Shown here: in pieces, positions 38,343-51,428 of the stretch | Layout of the letters: the number at the start of each line of letters is the position of its first letter | Numbering within the stretch: the first letter of the stretch is position 1 | Assembly (NCBI GenBank): GCA_019671135.1 | Contig: JAHRHY010000024.1 | Span: 62,001 to 126,000 of the forward strand | Reading direction: 5' to 3' | From: Linnemannia hyalina | Lineage: Eukaryota > Mortierellomycota > Mortierellomycetes > Mortierellales > Mortierellaceae | Length of the DNA stretch: 64,000 nt | The notes under the pieces: generated by a model | What the model saw: only the letters and a program-made list of their open reading frames with translations | Databases searched by the model: none | What the model was told of the DNA's origin: nothing | Made by a program: the position numbers and the translations under genes

Positions 38343-38786
38343 TGTGTTGCGAAGCATCGAAGAGAAAGTTAGGGAAAGAGAGAGTGAGGGAAATGAAGAA
38401 GGTGAGGAATGGAAAGAACAGAACGAAGGAGAAAGGAAGTGAGGGTGAAGTGAGAGAAGGAAGGAGTGGCAAAGGCGATGAGTAAAGGGCGTGGGAATGA
38501 CAGCAGCGGCAAGTACCTTTATTTCATAGCTGCAAGGAAATAATGAGTGTGACGTTTCCTTCCCTCCAGGGGAGACGTCCATAATTCTCTTGTTGGTTGA
38601 AAGAATCTATGTGATCTTCCCTAATATGGATCGAAATTAACTCTCACAAGACTTTACTGGGCTACTATGAAATAACACTCAAAGCTGTTTCTTCCTCACC
38701 ATTTTCCTACTCTTACTACCTCAGCAAACCGACTATCCTCATCAACATTCGTTTCTTCCGACCCCAAAAGCACAAGCCCCAACACC

Positions 38787-41700
38787 ATGGGGCTCTTCGA
38801 CTGGTACCCTTTCATTCGCAAGAAGGGCTACAACCCTACTGTTCTATACCAATCAGTCCTAGCCTCCCTGACAACAGGCACACGTCGCTTTGATGTGATG
38901 GCCAACTGCTTTCCCGTCATCCAACAAGCCTACTCGAACCAGAACTTGCCTCCGGATGATGCGCACAGGATTTTGGAAAACGACATTAAACGATTTGGCG
39001 ACCCACTCAACATGCGTTTATACATTGACGGCGATCAGGCAGAGGAAAAAATGGATATAGCCAAGGCACGAGACGCAAAGCGACACAAGGCCCTGAACCG
39101 GACGGAAAAGAGCATCAAGGTTTTCGAGGAGAGACTGAACAGCAATTTGAGGGTCAGGAAACGACACCTCACTGACGTCAAGGCTGGACTCAAGTCGTCT
39201 TTTCACTGGTCGTTGAGGAGTCGCCAGGAGTTTGCCAACTACATGCGGCACCGCGGTTGGACTGTTATCGTTTGCAGGACGGAGGCTGATCTTGCTATTG
39301 CTATGGATGCTCAGGGCATTGACGTCATTATCTCGAAGGACAGTGATATGATGGCGTATCAATCAGTCACGACCCTCTGGCGTCCAGTCTCCAATAACCT
39401 TATCCTCGTTTACAAGCCTCCCGATGTCCTCGCAACTCCTGGTATCTCTCGGACGTAGCTGACGGCGCTCGCGGTAGTATCTCGAAATGACTATCACAAG
39501 AACATCTACTCGCTTGGGCCAGCAACCAACTTCAGCATTATCAAATCGATTGGATCAAGACCAGGTAATATCGCGTTGAAATTGAGTGGCGACTTCTTTT
39601 TTTTGGTATTCTCAGCCAAATATTTTACAAAGCTGGTTCTCATTCTGATTACCTTTTTTTTTTTAAAATAGACGCCCGAGAGATTGTCGCTGCCTACCTT
39701 ACCCACGGCCAAGTCGTGGTGAAAAACACGAAAGAGGAGACATTCGAGAACTCGATCCGGGTGTTCATTCTTTTACAGCAAGAGCCAATCCAGCCTTTAG
39801 TCCAAGAGCCGCAAGCCCTGCAGCTCTTCCGTGTATTGCAGCACAGGTTCAACGAACTTTGCATCAAGCACCAATCCATAAAAAATATTCGAGCGGCAGG
39901 AGTCAAAGAGAGGTAATTGTACAATGTATTTTTTGAGGATTTTCGCACTTTGCGGAGAGTTATTTATGAACTACAGTTCTCATCATATGCTTTTGTTGGT
40001 ATGTAATAAATAGGCCCAAGGATGACATTGTACGGCTACCCTCGCCAAAGACCTTCAACCGGTACCGGACGGTCGAGTCACCCGCTGCTATCTCCAAGAC
40101 AAAGACCGTCACTACACCGCAACCTGCGCGTGGTCCTTCACAACAAATCTCTTCTGATTCCAGTCCATCTCAACAGTCTACTTCTGTGATGTCTGCCCCA
40201 GATGCTGACGGCCATCCACCCTTATCAAGGACACGGATCCCGCGGAACCGAGGACGATTCTCGTTCAAGGAGAGAACCCGCAAGGTTGTCCATGCTCCAC
40301 CTCCCAAGGCTAAGCAATTCAAACTGAAGTTTTACCAAGAACGACCGGAGACTGTCAACCCCACCCCAGCCAAAAAGACGATGTCAAAGGCCAACAAACC
40401 ACCACAACCCAACATGAAACCGATCGCCGACAAGGACAAGAGGGGATTATTGCGATCTCTTTCTTGGCACCATCCTACCGCATGGCTGGAAATTGGCACC
40501 ATGGAGGCGAATGTTGGACGTGTATCAGGAGATGGAGCAACACTCGGAAACCCGGAAATCCCACTGAATCTTAACATTGTGCAGCAGGAAGTGGTGGATT
40601 GCCTACAGGAGGCTGTCCAATCAGCAGCGACTGTCAAACGGAATGCCCAGCGGCTGATCGGAGAGTTTGTTGAGACATTGGCTGTCAGGATGCACGCCGC
40701 AGAGGAGACGAAGAGGGCAGAGTTGCAGAAGCTCTCCCCGCCAATGACCATGACCAACGTCGAGCGTTGCAAAGCCAAGCGCGATGCTGTCACAAAGGAC
40801 GAGCGAGAAATCCTTACCCATCTATGTGTGCGTATCAAACCCAATGCTGCCGACAAGGAGCAACAGGATGTTGAGCAGAAGGAGGAGGACAACACCGACC
40901 TGGACGACAAGGGCAATCTCGAGCAACAATTTCTGCGGCCTTTCCTGGCATATCTCTATTCCGGGAACTACCCGAGTAAAACAGGAGTGGGTGTCGTTGT
41001 GAACAAGCTCATTGACTGGTCGACAGATCACGGGTTCCATCACCCTATTCGGGATAGGAGAGACCTCAACGAGACTATGCCGTTCACCCCTTCCATGCTT
41101 GTCCGCTCTGTCTCAGTACAACTCGCAGTCGAATTACAGCGGATCTATGGACATGGCCCCCATGACCTTCACAAGCAGGTATGAATCAAAGCATCAGTAC
41201 CTACTTTATTATGTATTTCAATTTAAATCACAAAGTTAACATTCTCACTCTTGTTTTTCATTTTTAGGCCACAGCTATGGTGGAGAAACATTTATTGCCA
41301 CCAGAGGCCGACATTGGTATACAGGACGACATCTCCGCTGTTGAGAACTTTCTTCAACTAAATCGAATCACTGGCAACAGGCGTCGGATTATCCCTCTCA
41401 CCTCGTTCGAGTTACCATTCGTGTCGTTCGCTGAGCCTGAGCTTGCTTCGTTTTTCTGGAAGAGAGAATCGCTCAAGACGCGACTTACGGATCTGGTTGC
41501 AGAGGATGGATCTCCTGCCAATGGCTTCAACTTCCGGCCTACAAGCTCCGTGAGTTGCAATCAGTACGGTACCGTCGGTTGGAACCTACCAAGCTGCCAC
41601 CCAAGCTGACGTCTACGGTTGGAGGCACAGACTACTATCTCCAAGAAATCCGGCGTGTGATAACCTGCAAGGAGGATATCGAGAAGCTTTGGCCAGGTGT

Positions 41701-42961
41701 CCCTGTCGAAAGGATCAAGACTTTGACATTGGACGGTGGACAAGTATGCGTTATTGGTGCCTTCGCGGATCTTGCAGAGGACGTGTTGAGCCAGTCTAAG
41801 GGCAAGGATAATGCGAACGAGTCATCTATGGAAGACGTCACCACCACCACCACCGTCGCCACTACCACCGCCACCGACAATCAGCAATCGATTAATGCAA
41901 CTACCGCCGTATCGACCAAAGTCCCCATCCCGTTGCCACAGTCACAAGGGTTACCTACCTTCTCGTCCAGGACAACATTTCTGAACCTGGCTGTCAAACA
42001 GAAAGCCGTTTACCAACCTACGTTCAGATTCCGGCGCTGGCTTGAGGACGCAATGCAAGAGCAGGTCTCTGTAGATGGACAGCAGGTATCGATATCCGAC
42101 ATCGAGTCTCGACTTCCGCCCCTCAAAGGCCAAGGCTCGAGCGTGATCAACTATGTCCAGGAGCTGAAGCGGGTGGAGGAGTGTCTCCAGAAGTTTTATG
42201 CTGGCTCGGGAAATCTGTACAAGCGGCAGAAGTGGGACATGGAGAGGGCCCGCGATTATGAGTACCAGCTTATCGCAAATCGGCTCCCTGGGATCGTGGG
42301 AGGAAGTCTTGGCGAGCGATATGACCCATCAAATCCAGTTCTCATTGGCGTCGGTCTTGGGAACTTCTCTATCACGAGCGGACTGTCAGCCCTCAACTCG
42401 ACCTTTCTCAGCTACTTCATTCAAAAGGTAACCATTGCCTTGAAAGTGTCCATTAGCGGAGAGTACCCCTTTATGGGTCTCCGTGTGGTAAAAAAACTAA
42501 TACGTATGCTCCTTTGATTTTTTTTCCGGAATCAGGCCCGCTCTCTCGGTTACATTATCGTCGGTCTGAACGAGTACTACACGAGTAAGAAGTGCCCTCA
42601 CTGCGGCCACTTTGTCGCCCAGGTCACTCTCCGCCGCTTCTACTGCCCCGAGTGCCAAGTGTATCATCATCGCGACGTTATGGCAGCCGAGAATATGGCG
42701 AACATTGTGCGTGGATATCTGGAAAAGCAAGAGCGGCCTGAGTATCTACACCCCGTAGCCGCTGACGGCTCTCTCCCATGGATGGCAAAAGCCGGCGCTG
42801 GACCCGCTACAAGTTCCACCGCCGCCTCCTCCAGCAGCAACACCACCACCGCCATCAATCGACCAAAGGGATCGCGCAAGAGGGCAGCTTCGACCTCCAG
42901 CTCAAGTCGGGGTCGTCGTGGGAAGGTGGCTCAAGAGGATTTATGGAGCAGCTATACATAG
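38787..42961 (+). pseudogene. FEN1/XPG-type nuclease fused to TnpB/Fanzor-like RuvC domain, copy 1
   Basis: Exons 38787-39564, 39672-39912, 40015-41178, 41268-42427 and 42536-42961, with clean GT-AG introns. N-terminal flap-nuclease core: MGLFDWYPFIRKKGY, RRFDVMANCFPVIQ, LYIDGDQAEEKMDIAKARDA, RTEADLAIAMDAQGIDVIIS with SKDSDMMAY, then the H3TH-like LTALAVVSRNDY. The acidic residues expected of FEN1/XPG are present. After a basic Pro-rich linker and a helical region comes a RuvC-like core: LTLDGGQVCVIGAFA (motif I Asp), VGLNEYYTSKKCPHCG (motif II Glu, first zinc pair), FYCPECQVYHHRD (second pair, motif III Asp), then AAENMANI. Tail is Ser/Arg-rich and basic. Lesions: TAG at 39456-39458 where copy 2 has Gln, and a deletion/frameshift near 41530. 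Function inferred only: DNA cleavage, perhaps RNA-guided. Confidence 0.8.
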
Positions 42962-43023
42962 TCTGTGTGACGGTTCGCCCACACACATTAGTGCAGATAG
43001 GAGGGTGTGGGTGCACAGATGCG

Positions 43024-43040
43024 TCTTCGGTGACGTAATT
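43024..43040 (+). other. Conserved 3' block TCTTCGGTGACGTAATT, copy 1
   Basis: A perfect 17-base match to 47948-47964, here 62 bp after the stop codon. The surrounding 80 bp (TTAGTGCAGATAGG / TTAGTGCGGGTAGG) are also partly conserved. Possible element end, guide-RNA part or transcription-end signal. Confidence 0.6.
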
Positions 43041-43129
43041 TAGGCGCCCATTCTCCTCAAGTCTCCCTCCAGGAAACAGGAAGAGCAATAACTAATCGAC
43101 ACACAGAGAATTGTTACCCTTCTTCCTTC

Positions 43130-43290
43130 TTTCTCACTCTTCTTTCTCCTTCTCCCAACACTCTCCTTTCTTCCCTCACTCTTTCTCCCAACACTCTTCT
43201 TTCCCCCAACACTCTTCTTACCCCCAACACTCTTCTTACCCCCAACACTCTCCTTTCTTCATTCACCACTCTTCATTCTTCCTTCGCCAC
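43130..43290. repeat. CT-rich minisatellite, CCCCCAACACTCTTCTTA unit
   Basis: About seven imperfect 17-20-bp units with the words CCCAACACTCT and TTCTTTC lie directly upstream of the copy 2 start. Confidence 0.65.
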
Positions 43291-43329
43291 CCATCTTTCT
43301 TCCCACGCCCATGCGCCGATTGCGACAAC

Positions 43330-46300
43330 ATGGGGTCTCTTTGACTGGTTTCCCTTTTATTCGGCGGAAGGGTATGACCCTGTTCAGCTTTATCACACGG
43401 TCATCGGCAGCCTCCTCACCACTGGTCGACGGCGATTTGATGTGCTTGGCAGCTGTTTTCCGGCAATCAGGATGCCTATTCCAAGCATCCACAGAAGGAG
43501 GCCCATAAAATATTGCAGAAGGAAATCGAGCGGTATGGGACATCAACCAACATGAGTTTATACCTTGATGACCCTCAGGCGGTCGAGAAGAGTGCTACAG
43601 CAGAAGCGCGCGAGTCGAAACGACAGAAGGCTATTGAAAAGCTTTCGGATAGCTTGGATACCTTCGAGATGAGGATCAACACAGGATCAAGAGTGCGCAA
43701 GTGGCAGTATGACGATATCAAGAAAGGCCTTGGATCATCATTTTACTGGAGTCTCGACAGCAGGAAGGACTTTGCTCAACATATGACCGAACAAGGATGG
43801 ATTGCTGAGGTCTGTGATACCGAGGCGGACGTCAAGATTGCCAGAGATGCACAGTCAAGGGATATTATTATCTCCGGAGATTCTGATATGCTCGGTTACG
43901 CGAACATCCACACTCTGTGGCGCCCTGTCTCCAAGTCCGTAATCCTGGTCTACTCTCTGCCAGATATCCTCAAGACCATCGGATTCACACGTGCGCAACT
44001 CACGGCGCTTGCGGTTGTCTCTAAGAATGACTACCAACGCAATATCAAGGGCCTTGGTCCGGCTAGTAACTTTGGTGTCATAAAGAAGATTGTACGTTTA
44101 TTAGGTAACGTTGTGCTGAATACGTTCTTTCTTTCCTTATATCGTTGTATACGTTGTATCGTAACCACAACTTTTTGTTTCTTGTTGAAATAGATCCCCA
44201 TTTGATTGTTGCCGCGTATCTGTCCGACCCCACCGTTATCTCCAAAAACAAGCTGGAGGCGACATTCAAGGATTCCATCCGAGACTTTATTGAGATGAGG
44301 CAACAAGTCATGAACCCACTCCGGCCGAACCCAACCCAAGCAGTTTATCATGCTTTACAGGAGCGTTTCCGAGACCTATGCCAGAAGCGCGAATCTCTCA
44401 AAGATGTCAAAGGAAGCGAAGCTCAGCCAACGTAAATTGAGAAACCTAACCTATTGTTTTTTGTTTGTTTTGTAAGAAACATCAATGGATGATTATCTCA
44501 TTGTTTATTATTTTCGCATTGCATTATTAGGCCTGTCGAAGAGCCGATTGGAATCCCCCGTTCATTCAATCGATATCGCACAGTGGAGTCTCCAGCAAAC
44601 GTAGCGAAGGACACAAGAGTTCCTTCCCCACCACCTGAGGATAGTGGCCACCCGGCTTTGGCTAGGACAAGAATCCCACGTCATCGTGAGCGGTTCTCGT
44701 TTCAAGAACGAACTCGCAAAAGGCTCCGTGCTCCACCTCCTCGCATGAAACAGATGACACTCAAGTTCTACAAACAGCCCCCCGAGACAAGCGCCAAGTC
44801 TCCTCCCAAGCCGAAGACCAACGTCGAGAAGGCGCCTGCTTCGGCCAAGAAGCCCTTAACAGAGATGAAGAAGGCTGGTCTTGTTCGGTCGCTCGCCTGG
44901 CGCCACCCAACAGTCAGCCTTAAGGTGGGAACTATCAACACCAATACCAAGAGAGTTTTTTTTGGGTGGGCAGACATCAACAACCCCCTCTCCGACTACA
45001 CCAGGATCTATCGCGCCCTTTCCAACGACGCCCACTCTGTCCGCGTCCGATCCACAGTGTTCAGTGGTGGAATGTTTGCAGGAGTGTTCCCGTCTGGCGG
45101 CCGACAAAAAACGCGAGGCTCAGCGTCTTATTGGTATCTTCGTGGAGACACTACGTATTCGGATGGATTCCGCGGAGGAGGCCCTCAGGATCGAGCTGCC
45201 GCCCGAAAAACTGACCGTGTCGGAAGAACAGCGCACTAAAGCGCGCAGAGATGCTGTCTCAGACACTGAGCGCAAGATCCTCGACCACCTGTGCGAGCGG
45301 ATCAAGCCCAAGGATGATGGCGAGGATGACGATGAGGATGCCGCCGACAAAAAGAGAGAGAACAACTCCGACCTCGATAAGAAAGCGAATGACCAGGATG
45401 GATTTTTTTCTCTCATTTCTCACCTTTCTCTACTCCGGCAACTATCCACAAGAGAGGGATTTGAAAGGATTCGGAGCGAGAGATCTCTTACCCAAGGACA
45501 AGGACGAAGACGAGGACAAGGACAAGGGTAAGAAGGAGAAGACTAGCCCTGGAATTGTCGTCAACTATCTGATCGACTGGCTTGTCACTAGCCATTTCTA
45601 CGACCCAGTCGGAGGCGAGGTGAGATCGAGGTCAAGATGCCCTATACTCCTACGTACGTCGTTCGATTTGTGGCGTGTCAATTGGCTGTGGAGCTGAAGA
45701 AGCTTTACGGGAACGGAAGTCATGAACTGCGCAAGAAGGTATAGTGTCTCGAAGTACTCTTTATGATTGTCAAGGCCGTTTTGTATTAGTAGAAGCATCT
45801 CTAATACTGATTATTTTCCTTATAGGTTCTGACCGTGCAGAAGAAGGGCGTACTGGATGCCAGTATTGATATCGGGATCTAGGAGCAGATCTCGACCATC
45901 GAAAACTTCGTGTTCCTCAACAAGCTCACCAGCAACAGCAGGCGAATAGTACCTCTCACTACCTCACAGCAGCTGTTTGTATCGTTTTCAGAACGGGAGT
46001 TGGGGAGTTGGTGTCGTTCTTTTGGAAGAGAGAGGTGCTAAAGCAGAGACTTTGTGAGTTGGCCCTCTAGAGCAGTACCGTAATTTACAACACTTGGGAG
46101 CCTCGACAGCTGGATTGGATCCAAGGAGCCAGACTTTATTATCAAGCATTTCATCTGTGATGTTGGCTCGGAGGGATTGACCAGCAGACAGAAGAAGAAG
46201 GCTGGACATCGAGCAGCAGTCAGATTGTGGACGCTGGATGATATTCGGTCGCGTCTGCAGCAGTTCCTGCAGGAGGATGAGAAGAAGGTCAAGAAGAATA

Positions 46301-47875
46301 TCAAGGATGATGACGAGGGCGAGTTCCACCCGGCTATGTACAAGGAGAAGGGCTATGTCCTTAGAGGGTCGATCTCACAGACGGGCTCCGAGTGAAGTTG
46401 CTGTCGTTCAAGCTTCGCGAGTTGCAGGATATGCGGTACCGTCGCTGGAGAGAAGACCGATTGCCATCCAGGCTGACCTCGACTGTGGGCGGGACAGACT
46501 TTTTTTGCAGGAGATTCGCAACATGCTTACCTGCAAGGAGGACATTGAACGATTGTAGCCAGGAGTCGACGTCAAGGACATCAGAACTTTAACCTTGGAT
46601 GCTGGACAGGCCTGCATTGTTGGAGCATTTGCTCATCTCCCCGAGGAAATTGCGAAGAGGGTGAAGGGCAAGGAGGTTGCCAAGGATCTGTCTTCCAGCG
46701 ACATGGAGGGCGTTGTCGCCACAGGACCTCTGGACCCTGCGTCTGTGTCAACATCATCAGTCTCCTCAGCGTCGACTATGGCATCCTTGTTGACACCTCT
46801 GGATACCTCCGGCGGCTCCTCTTCTAACGACTCGGCTCCTCGATCTGCAAAGAATGTCTCATCGCCATCCATCTCACCTCAGCCCTCCACGGCCAACCCA
46901 GCCCTGTCACCAAGACCGGTATTTTACAATCTTGCTGTCAAAGCCAAGGCCGTCTATCAAACCCACTCTCAAATTTCGGAGATGGACGAGGAGCGAGAAG
47001 GATAACATACCGGTCGGTGAGGACAGATCGATCACAGACATTGAGACACACCTGCCCCCTCTGCGAGGGGTCCTTCGGCGAGTACTATCGACTATATCAA
47101 GGAGGTAGAGCAGGAGGAGGAGATGTTGAAAGCATTCTACAACGGTCCGGATGGCAAGTACAAACGGAATCATTGGGACATGCAGCGAGCGCGCCATGGG
47201 GAATTCCAGCTTATCGCCCATCGTTTGCTTGGAATTGTGGGAGGAGGACTTGGGATACTCAGCGATCCGTCCAAACCCGTCATCATTGGGATAGGATTAG
47301 GGAAATTCGGGACCAAGAGTGGATTGACGTCGCTTCATTCTACTTTCCTCTCCTACTTTGTACCCTTGGTAAGCATTGTCTTGTGTCTATTTATTGTCAA
47401 TGAAAAGACGCTGTGCAGAAGCAAGTAACTAACAAAATTCCTTCATACTTCATTTCAGACTCTCTCACTTGGATATCTTGTTCTAGGCCTAAATGAATAT
47501 TATACTAGCAAAAAGTGCCCTGGATGCGGACAGTTCGTGGGCCAGGTCGACATGTGACGCTTCTATTGCTCCCAATGCTAAGTTTTCCACCACAGGGACG
47601 TCATGGCAGCTGAGAACATGGCGAACATTCTACAGGGCTATCTCCTCGACTTGCAGCACCCCGACTATCTCTACCCAATCGCCCCAGTTGGAAGTATGCC
47701 CTGGAAGGAAGCAAGCAGCGGACTCGGAACCCCCTCCACCACAGGCTCCACCGCAACCAAGACCGCTACTACTAGTGGCCTCACCAAGGTTGCCCTTCGG
47801 TCCAAAGGTCAGCGGAAACGATCGTCGACTGCTTCGAGTCTGAAGCAAGCCCCCTCGAAGTCAGCAAGAAATTAG
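43330..47875 (+). pseudogene. FEN1/XPG - TnpB/Fanzor-like fusion, copy 2, heavily decayed
   Basis: Same domain order and intron positions as copy 1. Start ATG at 43330, with single-base insertions in the first 40 bp that break the frame. Nuclease landmarks: LYLDDPQAVEKSATAEARES, EVCDTEADVKIARDAQSRDI, SGDSDMLGYANIHTLWRPVS, AQLTALAVVSKNDYQRNIKG. RuvC side: LTLDAGQACIVGAFAHL, YYTSKKCPGCGQFV, HHRDVMAAENMANI. It retains a segment (WTLDDIRSRLQQFLQEDEKK, GYVLRGSI) that copy 1 lacks. Further frame changes near 45100, 45410, 45620 and 46390; stops at 45880 (TAG for Gln), 46556 (TAG for Trp), 47556 (TGA) and 47579 (TAA for Gln). Not translatable as one protein. Confidence 0.8.
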
Positions 47876-47947: not shown

Positions 47948-47964
47948 TCTTCGGTGACGTAATT
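47948..47964 (+). other. Conserved 3' block TCTTCGGTGACGTAATT, copy 2
   Basis: Identical to 43024-43040, here 72 bp after the stop codon of copy 2. The coding sequences themselves have diverged a lot, so a perfect noncoding match stands out. Confidence 0.6.
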
Positions 47965-48021
47965 ATCACCCCCCTTTGTCCCCCAGTGATGTCTCGTTGC
48001 ATCTCTTTCTAACCCATCAAC

Positions 48022-48175: not shown

Positions 48176-48254
48176 CTCATTCTAAGCGCGCCTGACCTTT
48201 GTGATTCTTCTGTTAACAAAGGTAAATCGTTGACCTCTGGTCTTCTCGCGCGTA

Positions 48255-48590
48255 GAAACACCCTGTCATATAAGTGGCCCGCTTCTTATGCTCCAGCAGA
48301 TATACTTCGGGCTCTGCCGAGACGGGAAGTGGCTACGACAGCGGTGGTCCTCAGAAGGGCTCTGCATGGCATGTGCTCTCTAGGGCGCCATGTGATACCT
48401 CTGTGCGATTCAATGCGTGATAGGTGGGCAGAAACACCCTGTCATATAAGTGGCCCGCTTCTTATGCTCCAGCAGATATACTTCGGGCTCTGCCGAGACG
48501 GGAAGTGGCTACGACAGCGGTGGCCCTCAGAAGGGCTCTGCATGGCATGTGCTCTCTAGGGCGCCATGTGATACCTCTGTGCGATACTGT
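48255..48590. repeat. Tandem duplication, period 176 bp
   Basis: GAAACACCCTGTCATATAAG and the following about 155 bp at 48255 recur almost unchanged at 48431. Only a few differences are visible, so the duplication is recent. No coding role is evident; it lies about 110 bp upstream of the 604-residue gene and could affect its promoter. Confidence 0.85.
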
Positions 48591-48703: not shown

Positions 48704-51428
48704 ATGGCTACACACGTTCCATGGGCCATGAATAAAGAGTCAGGCAAAGAGCATGTCTCCTTTGGGAACTTTGTCCGGCATTTCGATCTGACTGACAGGG
48801 ATTCCGCGACTAAAGCCTACACTGCCCTGATTGATTCTCCTCTATTGCGCAGCGAACGACGGAATAAACTCCAGAGCGCATTCCGGGATTTCTTGGATAA
48901 TCATGCAGAACGATTCTGGGCCGAACTTGAATCCCAAGTGTGCTCAGAAATTACAGCCAAGCAAGCTGGGGCAACAGCTCAGAAGGTTGGGGTAAAACAA
49001 GCAGAGATCTCTTATACAAAGTATTTTGCAAACGTTGACGGTAAGCACAGTTCATCTATTTTCACAAGCCGTTGGATATATGACGGAGAAGCATAGTTAT
49101 CGATCTCACAGTAATAACGTAACTCCCGCCAGAATCGGTGCGGGCCTCGGTTACTCTTTCACCCGACGACGTCGTATATGATATCATCGCCAACGCTGAT
49201 CAGGCAAACGAACAACGTATGTCTCTTTAGTCATTTGACGCTTTTATATAGTATTAAATAATATATGTGAAATCTTATGCTTGTTGTTCGTTATGCTTTA
49301 GATCAAACAAGGTCGATCCGAATACCTCCTACAAGTCGTTTGTCGTCTCTTGTCGGTAAACAGCGAGCTCAGGGGACAGGTATGTTTCTTCGATCGATGA
49401 TGAAATGTGATCATTTGTAGTGTAGTAGTGTAATATATAATAATAATGCGATCATGCTTCGATGTGCGACACCAGAGGCGACGAGCACTACAGGTAAGAA
49501 ATCGAGTCTATCTATGATGTTCTGTGAAAGCAGCGTGGCGCTTGGGTCTTCGCAACTAGTGGCTCATTTCCGCTTGTCTCTCTGTGTTTTCATGACCACA
49601 TTTCTCTGCGTCCTGTTTCTCTCTGATGTTCTACTGTGGGACTACAGCATATTTGAAACGGGATGTTGATGGCGATGTCACATTCGCGATGGTCATCGAC
49701 CTTGCTGTCGAGGATGTTGAAGCTGAAATCACAGGTATAGCACTGTCTTTGTTACTTACATCGCCTTTTATTATGTGAGATTAGACGAGGCGATTACTGG
49801 CGCGCTACCGTCAGCCACACTATCTTCTAGAACGACCTCGTCGACCAGCCCCACGGCGCCAGCGCTATCGTCCTCACAAAAGTGCAGAAAATCGGTAAGC
49901 TGAACAATGAATGAAGCTCGCGAAATTCATTATCGTTGACGACTACTAATATATCTGTTATTTGACTATAGTTCACTAAAAAGAACCGTCGATCGTTGGA
50001 AGGGCGTTATCAAGCGCTCGGAGAAAAATGGATCCTCGCATCTGGGACAATCGTAGAAGACGTGCTATATACTGCAGGCTCAGATGAGGACTGCGCATCA
50101 TTCAGGTACTTTTATCGTTGTCTAGCTTTCTTGTGGTCCTATAAACAAGCACATGCTACATGCTACATGCTACATGCTAATGGTCGTCATGTTTATCAGT
50201 CCCATTCACAGTTTCATGCTCGACCTGGATGATGCCAAGACGAAAGTGCTGTTTTCTGAGGAGGACTGGGAAGAGATAATCTCGGATCTTCCACCTTATG
50301 AACACTATGGCAAAGGAGCTGGCGAGTATCTGGATAAATGTATGGAAGTTGCCAGTAGGGAGGATATGAGAAAGATCTTGGAAAAGCGACAGGATGACCC
50401 CGAATGCAAGATCATATACTATTGTATGGATCAATGGTAAGTTCTCGTGGTTACCTCTTCTTCATTTTATTGTTGATTGACATGGACACCTAACTATCAT
50501 GCCCATTTTTGCCTACAACCAAAAACAGGGAGGAGCTGCTAAGCTCTGAATCATCGCCTTTCCCCGTGGCAGCACAGTTGGGAGAAACATGGTGGAAGGA
50601 TAATGCATGGGGGGTGTGCCGGCGTCTCGCCACAGGCATCAAAGATGCCTTTATAATCTTGGGAGAGAAAACTGGCCATGACTCGACGGACAGAAGGAAT
50701 CAAGACATCGGCACCGTTGATAGAAAGAAAATCGGTGTCAAGGCCGACTTCCTATGGCGCACAATATCATCCCCTGGCATCGATTGGTCGGTTGGGGAGT
50801 CAGCGACCGTGTGGGACCCAGCCTCCATGAAGTATCGCAACGAAGGTGTCTTCAAGCTGCCTCGACAACTTCATGACATCTTGGTTGCGAGAACAAGTGA
50901 GGCTGGTGGCGTTGACTCTCTTCGCAAGGAGTATATATGCGGGTTATTGACTGGAGGTAAGACTGTCTGCTTTCAGGCGTTTATTTGTTTGCGAATTTGA
51001 CTTTGGTACTAATCGAGCATTGTTAAAAATACACTAAAAAGGGCCTGTCATACAGCGGGTGCAGATCTGCTGGGGCACCAAAGGAGTGAACATCACACGG
51101 TTTTTCAGGTCCCCAGAGCGTCGCCTTTTCCCCACTGTTCAAGAGCTTGGCATAAGCTTGATGGCTGTGCATGACCTCCTCATCCTCCGAGTAAGTGATG
51201 GACGTGCAGTAAATAAATGTGAAGTGAAAAAAAGAATGCAACTGATAGAGATATACTCTGGGGTAATCCTTCTAGGCCACAACTCGTCGCCTATGCCATA
51301 AATACCAAGAAAGTCGCCGTGAGTTTTCCAAGTCCTCAGCCGAGGCGAGGCGCCAGGAGCTACTCCTCCCTTCCGTATCGCCCAGGGATAAGAAGAGGAA
51401 GTTTGGCCTGCTTAGTTCTTCCCCTTGA
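48704..51428 (+). CDS. Intact 11-exon gene, 604 aa, family not recognised
   Basis: Exons 48704-49040, 49133-49216, 49302-49379, 49476-49493, 49648-49734, 49785-49894, 49972-50105, 50200-50436, 50529-50956, 51042-51190 and 51276-51428. All junctions are GT-AG and the phases add up to 605 codons with stop. The fourth exon is an 18-bp micro-exon. Starts MATHVPWAMNKESGKEHVSF; the middle is Ser/Thr-rich and the C-terminal half is more structured (EEDWEEIISDLPPYEHYGKG, ETWWKDNAWGVCRRLATGIK, VKADFLWRTI, FPTVQELGISLMAVHDLLIL), ending in a basic DKKRKFG segment. No signal peptide or membrane helix. I do not recognise it; multi-intron families like this are common in these fungi. The upstream 176-bp duplication may carry the promoter. 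Confidence 0.7.

What the first reader, a model, noticed from the sequence alone, without database searches (positions are those of the whole stretch)
38787..47875. Flap-nuclease (FEN1/XPG) fused to a TnpB/Fanzor-like RuvC-zinc ribbon, in two tandem copies
Seen: one spliced frame joins a XPG-like core (acidic motifs FDV, IDGDQ, TEADLA, KDSDM, NDY) through a basic linker to a RuvC core with LDGGQ, NEYYTSKKCPHCG and CPEC...HHRD. Both paralogues share domain order and intron positions. Known: TnpB/Fanzor proteins use RuvC D-E-D residues and a zinc ribbon and are RNA-guided; FEN1/XPG enzymes cut 5' flaps at ss/ds junctions. I know of no described protein with both. Inference: an R-loop formed by the Fanzor half could present flap or bubble substrates to the XPG half, as part of a mobile-element or homing mechanism. 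The split could also be two adjacent genes, but continuous exons and in-phase introns in both copies argue for one protein.
Basis: partly seen in the sequence, partly recalled or inferred. Interest (0 to 1): 0.95.

Follow-up and report, generated by a model that had tools for sequence, protein, structure and literature searches.

The report
Flap nuclease fused to Fanzor
In a soil fungus and its relatives, a family of repeated, transposon-like elements carries one predicted gene that joins a predicted DNA flap nuclease to a Fanzor-like nuclease that is likely RNA-guided; the two copies in this window are broken, but an intact copy exists in the same genome.

The parts
38561..38570 (.). left direct repeat TCCCTCCAGG (target site duplication)
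   Evidence: Identical to 43064-43073; the only two occurrences in 38-48.5 kb
38571..43063 (+). copy 1 element, 4493 bp
   Evidence: Homology to the C4 and C22 copies starts at 38579/38574 and ends at 43063, between the direct repeats
38787..39564 (+). exon 1 of copy 1: XPG/FEN1 core
39456..39458 (+). in-frame TAG (lesion); the intact C4 copy has a sense codon here
39672..39912 (+). exon 2: end of the XPG core and start of the linker
40014..41178 (+). exon 3: conserved basic linker and start of the Fanzor-like half, in one open frame
41268..42427 (+). exon 4: middle of the Fanzor-like half and RuvC1 (LDGGQ); a 256-bp deletion at 41522/41523 shifts the frame
41732..41734 (+). RuvC1 catalytic Asp codon (D of LDGGQ)
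   Evidence: D in 47 of 47 aligned rows with a residue there
42536..42961 (+). exon 5: relocated RuvC glutamate, zinc ribbon (TNB) and RuvC3
   Evidence: PF07282 E 2.2e-14
42572..42574 (+). relocated RuvC glutamate (Ealt, E of NEYYTSKKC)
   Evidence: E in 36 of 38 aligned rows; place as defined in PMC10711439
42674..42676 (+). RuvC3 catalytic Asp codon (D of HHRD)
   Evidence: D in 38 of 38 aligned rows
43000..43058 (+). conserved 3' terminal hairpin capped by UUCG; candidate omega-RNA scaffold
   Evidence: z -4.0 for this copy (C17:105025); pairing kept in 17 of 17 non-redundant copies; motif at 25 of 31 fetched PF07282 loci
43064..43073 (.). right direct repeat TCCCTCCAGG
43331..47875 (+). 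copy 2 (public model KI688_007302), decayed member of another subfamily
47949..47976 (+). 3' end motif of copy 2, hairpin decayed
   Evidence: 3 mismatches to the pattern, 0 expected by chance; z -0.3

Best explanation
Copy 1 is a decayed member of a family of transposon-like elements of Mortierellaceae, in which an intact copy encodes one predicted protein with a predicted EXO1/FEN1-type flap nuclease joined by a basic linker to a Fanzor-like RuvC nuclease, and this protein likely acts as an RNA-guided nuclease that would process the DNA ends it makes. Shown: the fused frame in an intact copy, predicted folds, conserved active-site residues, element ends with direct repeats at some loci, and the 3' hairpin. 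Inferred: a transcript runs through the 3' hairpin into the flanking DNA and so gives a scaffold plus a guide that matches the insertion site. Inferred: the Fanzor-like half cuts the empty site (a homologous chromosome, or the donor site after excision), as proposed for TnpB (recalled), and the XPG half trims 5' flaps or resects 5' ends so that repair copies the element in. Inferred: insertion itself may use a Mutator-like transposase supplied in trans.
Against: Both window copies are broken. No transcript, guide RNA, cleavage or transposition data. RuvC1 is DPG in 0 of 47. Some annotations split the halves into neighbouring genes (BGZ68_009834/009835, BGX26_003973/003974). 61 of 97 PF07282 matches have no XPG match upstream, so the Fanzor-like side may also occur alone. 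The hairpin could act as DNA or as a transcript end: 6 of 31 fetched PF07282 loci lack it, 5 of 19 copies have z between -0.1 and -1.8, the cognate arm ranks first in only 3 of 14 and is worse than average in several, and RNAalifold on a plain alignment did not find it. The 5' inverted repeat is clear in 4 of 10 loci and direct repeats in 3 of 10; none at C4 or C48. dN/dS between young copies runs from 0.14 to 1.07. No transposase was looked for in the genome.
Confidence: 0.6

Rival explanations
1. Two adjacent genes: an XPG-like nuclease and a Fanzor-like nuclease travel in one element but are translated separately.
For: Some annotations split them; in P0017, P0021 and P0025 a Met stands just before the Fanzor-like half (read by eye).
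Against: The join lies inside one exon with an open frame; the linker itself is conserved (R347, R356, P436, K440, Q441, K445 invariant in ten proteins); the Met is missing at that place in P0001, P0009, P0010 and P0044; 51 of 137 listed predictions are fused.
Confidence: 0.12
2. Not RNA-guided: the RuvC half works as a transposase-like DNA nuclease that recognises the terminal hairpin or inverted repeat as DNA, and the XPG half cuts flaps at the ends.
For: The 3' arm of the hairpin is also the terminal inverted repeat where one is seen, so it could be selected as DNA; no other gene was noticed in copy 1; RuvC1 lacks DPG.
Against: The fold match spans the whole Fanzor body, not only RuvC (model residues 32-812 to PpFz1); G-U pairs, a UUCG loop in most copies and a more stable sense strand in 15 of 17 point to RNA.
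Confidence: 0.17
3. A host gene family with a repair or regulatory duty, not a mobile element.
For: Long-term constraint on both halves; no transposase noticed in copy 1.
Against: 66 XPG matches at 55 loci and 97 PF07282 matches in one genome, groups of copies with identical scores, copies with shared sharp ends and unrelated flanks, direct repeats at three loci.
Confidence: 0.06
4. Annotation or assembly artefact.
For: Both window copies are broken, and public models splice around the lesions.
Against: An intact copy reads through without lesion; fused predictions come from nine Mortierellaceae genera.
Confidence: 0.02

Closest known systems
Fanzor1 (SpuFz1, PpFz1, GtFz1)
   Same: Fold of the C-terminal half, relocated RuvC glutamate, zinc ribbon, fungal repeated element, hairpin at the 3' end next to the flank.
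   Different: N-terminal FEN1/EXO1 nuclease and long linker; RuvC1 is DLG, DGG or DAG, not DPG; about twice the usual 600-700 aa (PMC11423790, passages).
Fanzor1 in MuDR-like elements of Rhizopus, Phycomyces and Mucor (PMC3627910)
   Same: TIRs and 9-bp duplications without their own MuDR transposase (section 12 read whole).
   Different: XPG and FEN1 do not occur in that text; here a clear TIR in 4 of 10 loci and a duplication in 3 of 10.
FEN1 / EXO1 / XPG (Rad2) nucleases
   Same: Predicted fold, Met-Gly start, seven active-site carboxylates, NDY motif.
   Different: About 14-20% identical in the structural alignments; fused to a Fanzor-like half; one relative, P0021, is named 'Rad2 nuclease'.
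IS200/IS605 and IS607 TnpB
   Same: RuvC with zinc ribbon; D-hydrophobic-G at RuvC1 in most members here (DLG 33 of 47). Hairpins at IS605 ends are recalled.
AcademX transposons (recalled; two searches found no paper)
   Same: As I recall, a eukaryotic DNA transposon lineage whose protein carries an XPG nuclease.
   Different: Recalled to have a DDE-type transposase and no TnpB/Fanzor half; not compared here.

Membership tests
Fanzor | RuvC2 glutamate six residues upstream of the zinc finger (Ealt) | tested here: met
   E in 36 of 38 aligned proteins; definition in PMC10711439 section 23, read whole
Fanzor | RuvC1 motif DPG | tested here: not met
   DLG 33, DGG 9, DAG 5 of 47
Fanzor | Fanzor fold | tested here: met
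Fanzor | Structured omega RNA at the element 3' end | tested here: inconclusive
   Hairpin conserved, not known to be transcribed or bound; no Rfam match there
Fanzor | RNA-guided double-strand DNA cleavage | not testable with these tools
   Needs purified protein and RNA
XPG/FEN1/EXO1 nucleases | FEN1 fold | tested here: met
XPG/FEN1/EXO1 nucleases | Seven active-site carboxylates | tested here: met
   D35, D78, E163, D165, D182, D184, D232 invariant in six diverse members; 12 of 15 intact at all ten sites of both halves. Which FEN1 residues are catalytic is partly recalled (D86, D181, D233 appear in PDB titles)
XPG/FEN1/EXO1 nucleases | 5' flap or exonuclease activity | not testable with these tools
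   Needs an assay
Mutator-like (MuDR) element | TIRs and about 9-bp target duplications | tested here: inconclusive
   Duplication at 3 of 10 loci, clear TIR at 4 of 10
Mutator-like (MuDR) element | MuDR transposase | not tested
   None noticed in copy 1; the genome was not searched for one

The most novel reading that the evidence does not exclude
The fused protein is itself the mobility machine: a eukaryotic transposon without a DDE transposase, in which the Fanzor-like half, led by the element's own 3' RNA, opens and cuts the chosen target while the built-in FEN1/EXO1 half removes the flap, so that two coupled nucleases insert or copy the element.
Probability: 0.15. Interest if true: 0.95.

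Novelty: new variant of a known kind. Interest (0 to 1): 0.82.

Why it matters
If the protein works as its parts suggest, it is an RNA-guided nuclease that brings its own DNA-end processor, something editing work tries to build by hand. It would be a second eukaryotic route to the relocated-glutamate RuvC (Ealt without DPG), which bears on how Fanzors arose. It is also directly testable: intact natural copies are in public genomes, the candidate guide scaffold is a short hairpin at a known place, and each element's flank predicts its own target.

Tried and rejected
Intact gene in the window: rejected. Canonical Fanzor: not filed as such, DPG absent in 47 of 47. XPG_I and PF07282 alone were too weak or too general, so profiles and folds were used. 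RNAalifold on the plain MAFFT alignment of 17 ends gave no long hairpin, because the 5' arm was misaligned; the arms were then compared copy by copy. The script was meant to forbid pairs within an arm but did not; plain minimum-energy folds were used and only loop-spanning pairs counted. The 17 copies are those left from 30 motif sites after I dropped 13 (near-identical copies, both window copies, four sites not at an element 3' end). One search joined loci in a wrong orientation (14691 conflicts) and was replaced (0 conflicts). The TSD scan missed the window's repeat, which I saw by eye and checked. One search had a splice one base off; one search replaced it. Rfam found nothing at the hairpin. 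Tests not completed: genome-wide counts of the 3' motif and of the 5' TIR, and a second XPG query to see whether the 61 PF07282 matches without XPG have a more divergent one. A one-phrase mention of 'Fanzor flap endonuclease homologs' in viral contigs (PMC11071296, passages) describes no fusion.

Full report
Where it is. The window is G000:C17:62001-126000 of a 51.5-Mb genome. The protein encoded by window copy 1 is on record as KI688_007301 and that of copy 2 as KI688_007302 of Linnemannia hyalina, family Mortierellaceae.

What is in the window. Copy 1 (38787-42961) has five exons and four introns. Read as it stands it is broken: TAG at 39456-39458 inside the XPG core, and a frame change at 41522/41523, where 256 bp present in the C4 copy are missing. 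Copy 2 (43331-47875) falls into seven tblastn pieces with stops and frame changes. The public model of copy 1 skips around the lesions and loses the NDY motif. The two copies are 51% identical over the longer XPG stretch, so they belong to different subfamilies.

An intact fusion in the same genome. C4:1735473 onward is 98% identical to copy 1 and, spliced at the same places, reads through as one 1335-aa protein, identical over its length to the public protein KI688_002751. In the host genome the XPG exon of copy 1 has 66 matches, which cluster into 55 loci; PF07282 has 97, of which 90 pass the Pfam cut-off. Of the 55 XPG loci, 36 have a PF07282 match 1.5-8 kb downstream on the same strand, against 3 of 55 upstream. 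The other way round, 61 of 97 PF07282 matches have no XPG match upstream; part of these may be truncated or more divergent copies, part may be Fanzor-like genes without XPG. I could not test this.

Relatives elsewhere. A search with the C4 protein found 22 proteins, a search with the Fanzor-like half of P0017 found 190, of which 120 were listed, and a search with an XPG-half profile found 37. The named hits that I saw are from Mortierellaceae genera by their names; two were looked up in the taxonomy (Linnemannia, Modicella); the rest are unnamed metagenome proteins. Of the 137 proteins from the first two searches, 51 score above 50 bits for both halves, 80 have only the RuvC part, mostly short exon-like fragments, and 3 have the XPG and middle part only; the 51 include five L. 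hyalina proteins, among them the public models of both window copies. The 51 come from nine genera (Linnemannia, Haplosporangium, Podila, Mortierella, Gryganskiella, Entomortierella, Dissophora, Benniella, Actinomortierella). The search method needs shared 5-residue words, so distant relatives in other phyla may be missed.

Is it one protein? The linker and the start of the Fanzor-like half lie in one exon with an open frame. The linker has invariant residues in ten fused proteins. The distances of the two halves correlate across 25 proteins (r 0.716, 0 of 5000 permutations); with P0061, whose XPG half is not recognisable, the value for 26 is 0.368, 2 of 5000. Between the distant copies C4 and C13 dN/dS is 0.17 for the XPG part (251 codons) and 0.09 for the Fanzor-like part (354 codons), but dS is saturated. 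Between young copies it runs from 0.14 to 1.07, as expected of transposon copies drifting after insertion. Against: at least two annotations put the halves into neighbouring genes. No transcript was available.

The element. Copies of the window's family share sharp ends with unrelated flanks. Copy 1 runs from 38571 to 43063 between two identical 10-bp repeats. In ten loci with both ends at hand, a terminal inverted repeat is clear in four (16 to 22 of 26 positions: C4, C22, C48, C13) and a direct repeat in three: window 10/10, C13 9/9, C22 8/9; none at C4 or C48. This resembles the MuDR-like Fanzor1 elements of Mucoromycotina described in PMC3627910 (section 12 read whole).

The 3' hairpin. 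Downstream of the stop codon lies a conserved end, CTTCGGTGACGTAATT..GCGCCCATTGTCC. In the 50 fetched stretches there are 30 sites; 25 lie 143-636 bp after a PF07282 match, 23 of them at 303-381 bp, and 25 of 31 fetched PF07282 loci have it. The window has two matches, one per copy, with none expected by chance. The end folds into a long hairpin: 17 of 17 chosen copies have 11-24 pairs across the loop, with two-sided changes at six or more positions; 14 of 19 have z of -2.6 or lower and 5 lie between -0.1 and -1.8, copy 2 of the window among them, while control stretches upstream lie between -1.4 and 1.8. The sense strand is more stable in 15 of 17. Pairing each 5' arm with its own 3' arm is better than with those of other copies (3 of 2000 permutations as low), although the own arm ranks first in only 3 of 14. 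In Fanzor1 structures a stem-loop sits between the core of the omega RNA and the guide (PMC11423790, passages). I therefore read the hairpin as a candidate scaffold with the flank as guide. Whether it is transcribed is unknown.

How it most likely works. Inferred from the parts: RNA made through the 3' end guides the Fanzor-like half to the site that matches the flank; the RuvC centre cuts; the EXO1/FEN1-type half trims flaps or resects 5' ends; repair from the element-bearing copy restores or spreads the element. Each step after the predicted structure is untested.

In print. Ten full-text searches of an open-licence library turned up no description. In three Fanzor papers searched for the words XPG and FEN1 there was none; for PMC11423790 FEN1 and 'fused' were absent. 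Subscription papers and supplements were not searched, so the fusion may be listed somewhere unremarked.

Noticed in passing
5' flanks of the elements, e.g. window 38540-38570: TGACGT or its reverse complement stands within 45 bp upstream of the element in 7 of 9 copies, against 2.1% of 45-bp stretches of the window. C23 and C49 are related copies, so 6 of 8 is fairer. It may be a target-site preference; the same hexamer is in the element's own 3' hairpin.
   Followed up: partly
G000 C1:941863, C48:114662, C48:302185, C6:27537, C5:672241, C15:578135, C44:398624/1911547/2231971, C48:1529947, C47:2516507: Eleven XPG-part matches with identical scores (30% identical to copy 1), each with a PF07282 match about 3.6 kb downstream: a young, recently spread subfamily. 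Its sequence could not be fetched.
   Followed up: no
G000 C4:130712 and C1:3808662 groups: Two further groups of PF07282 matches with near-identical scores and no XPG match upstream; perhaps Fanzor-like elements without the flap nuclease.
   Followed up: no
G000 C44:133471-138047 (in the stretch C44:131055-139201): An element of another fused subfamily follows directly on a piece of a window-type element, broken off in intron 4: nested or recombined copies.
   Followed up: no
G000 C1:609541, C8:349633 and C21:33260: This subfamily has two hairpins with UUCG loops in a row at its 3' end.
   Followed up: no
window 48254-48585: Tandem repeat of 176 bp, 1.9 copies, 99% matches.
   Followed up: no
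window 49787-51193: 98.8% identical to a stretch next to a 5' fragment of the copy 1 family on C11; another repeated element.
   Followed up: no
public proteins P0002 (KI688_007301): The automatic gene model hides the stop and the deletion of copy 1, so public proteins of this family should not be taken as intact without a look at the DNA.
   Followed up: yes
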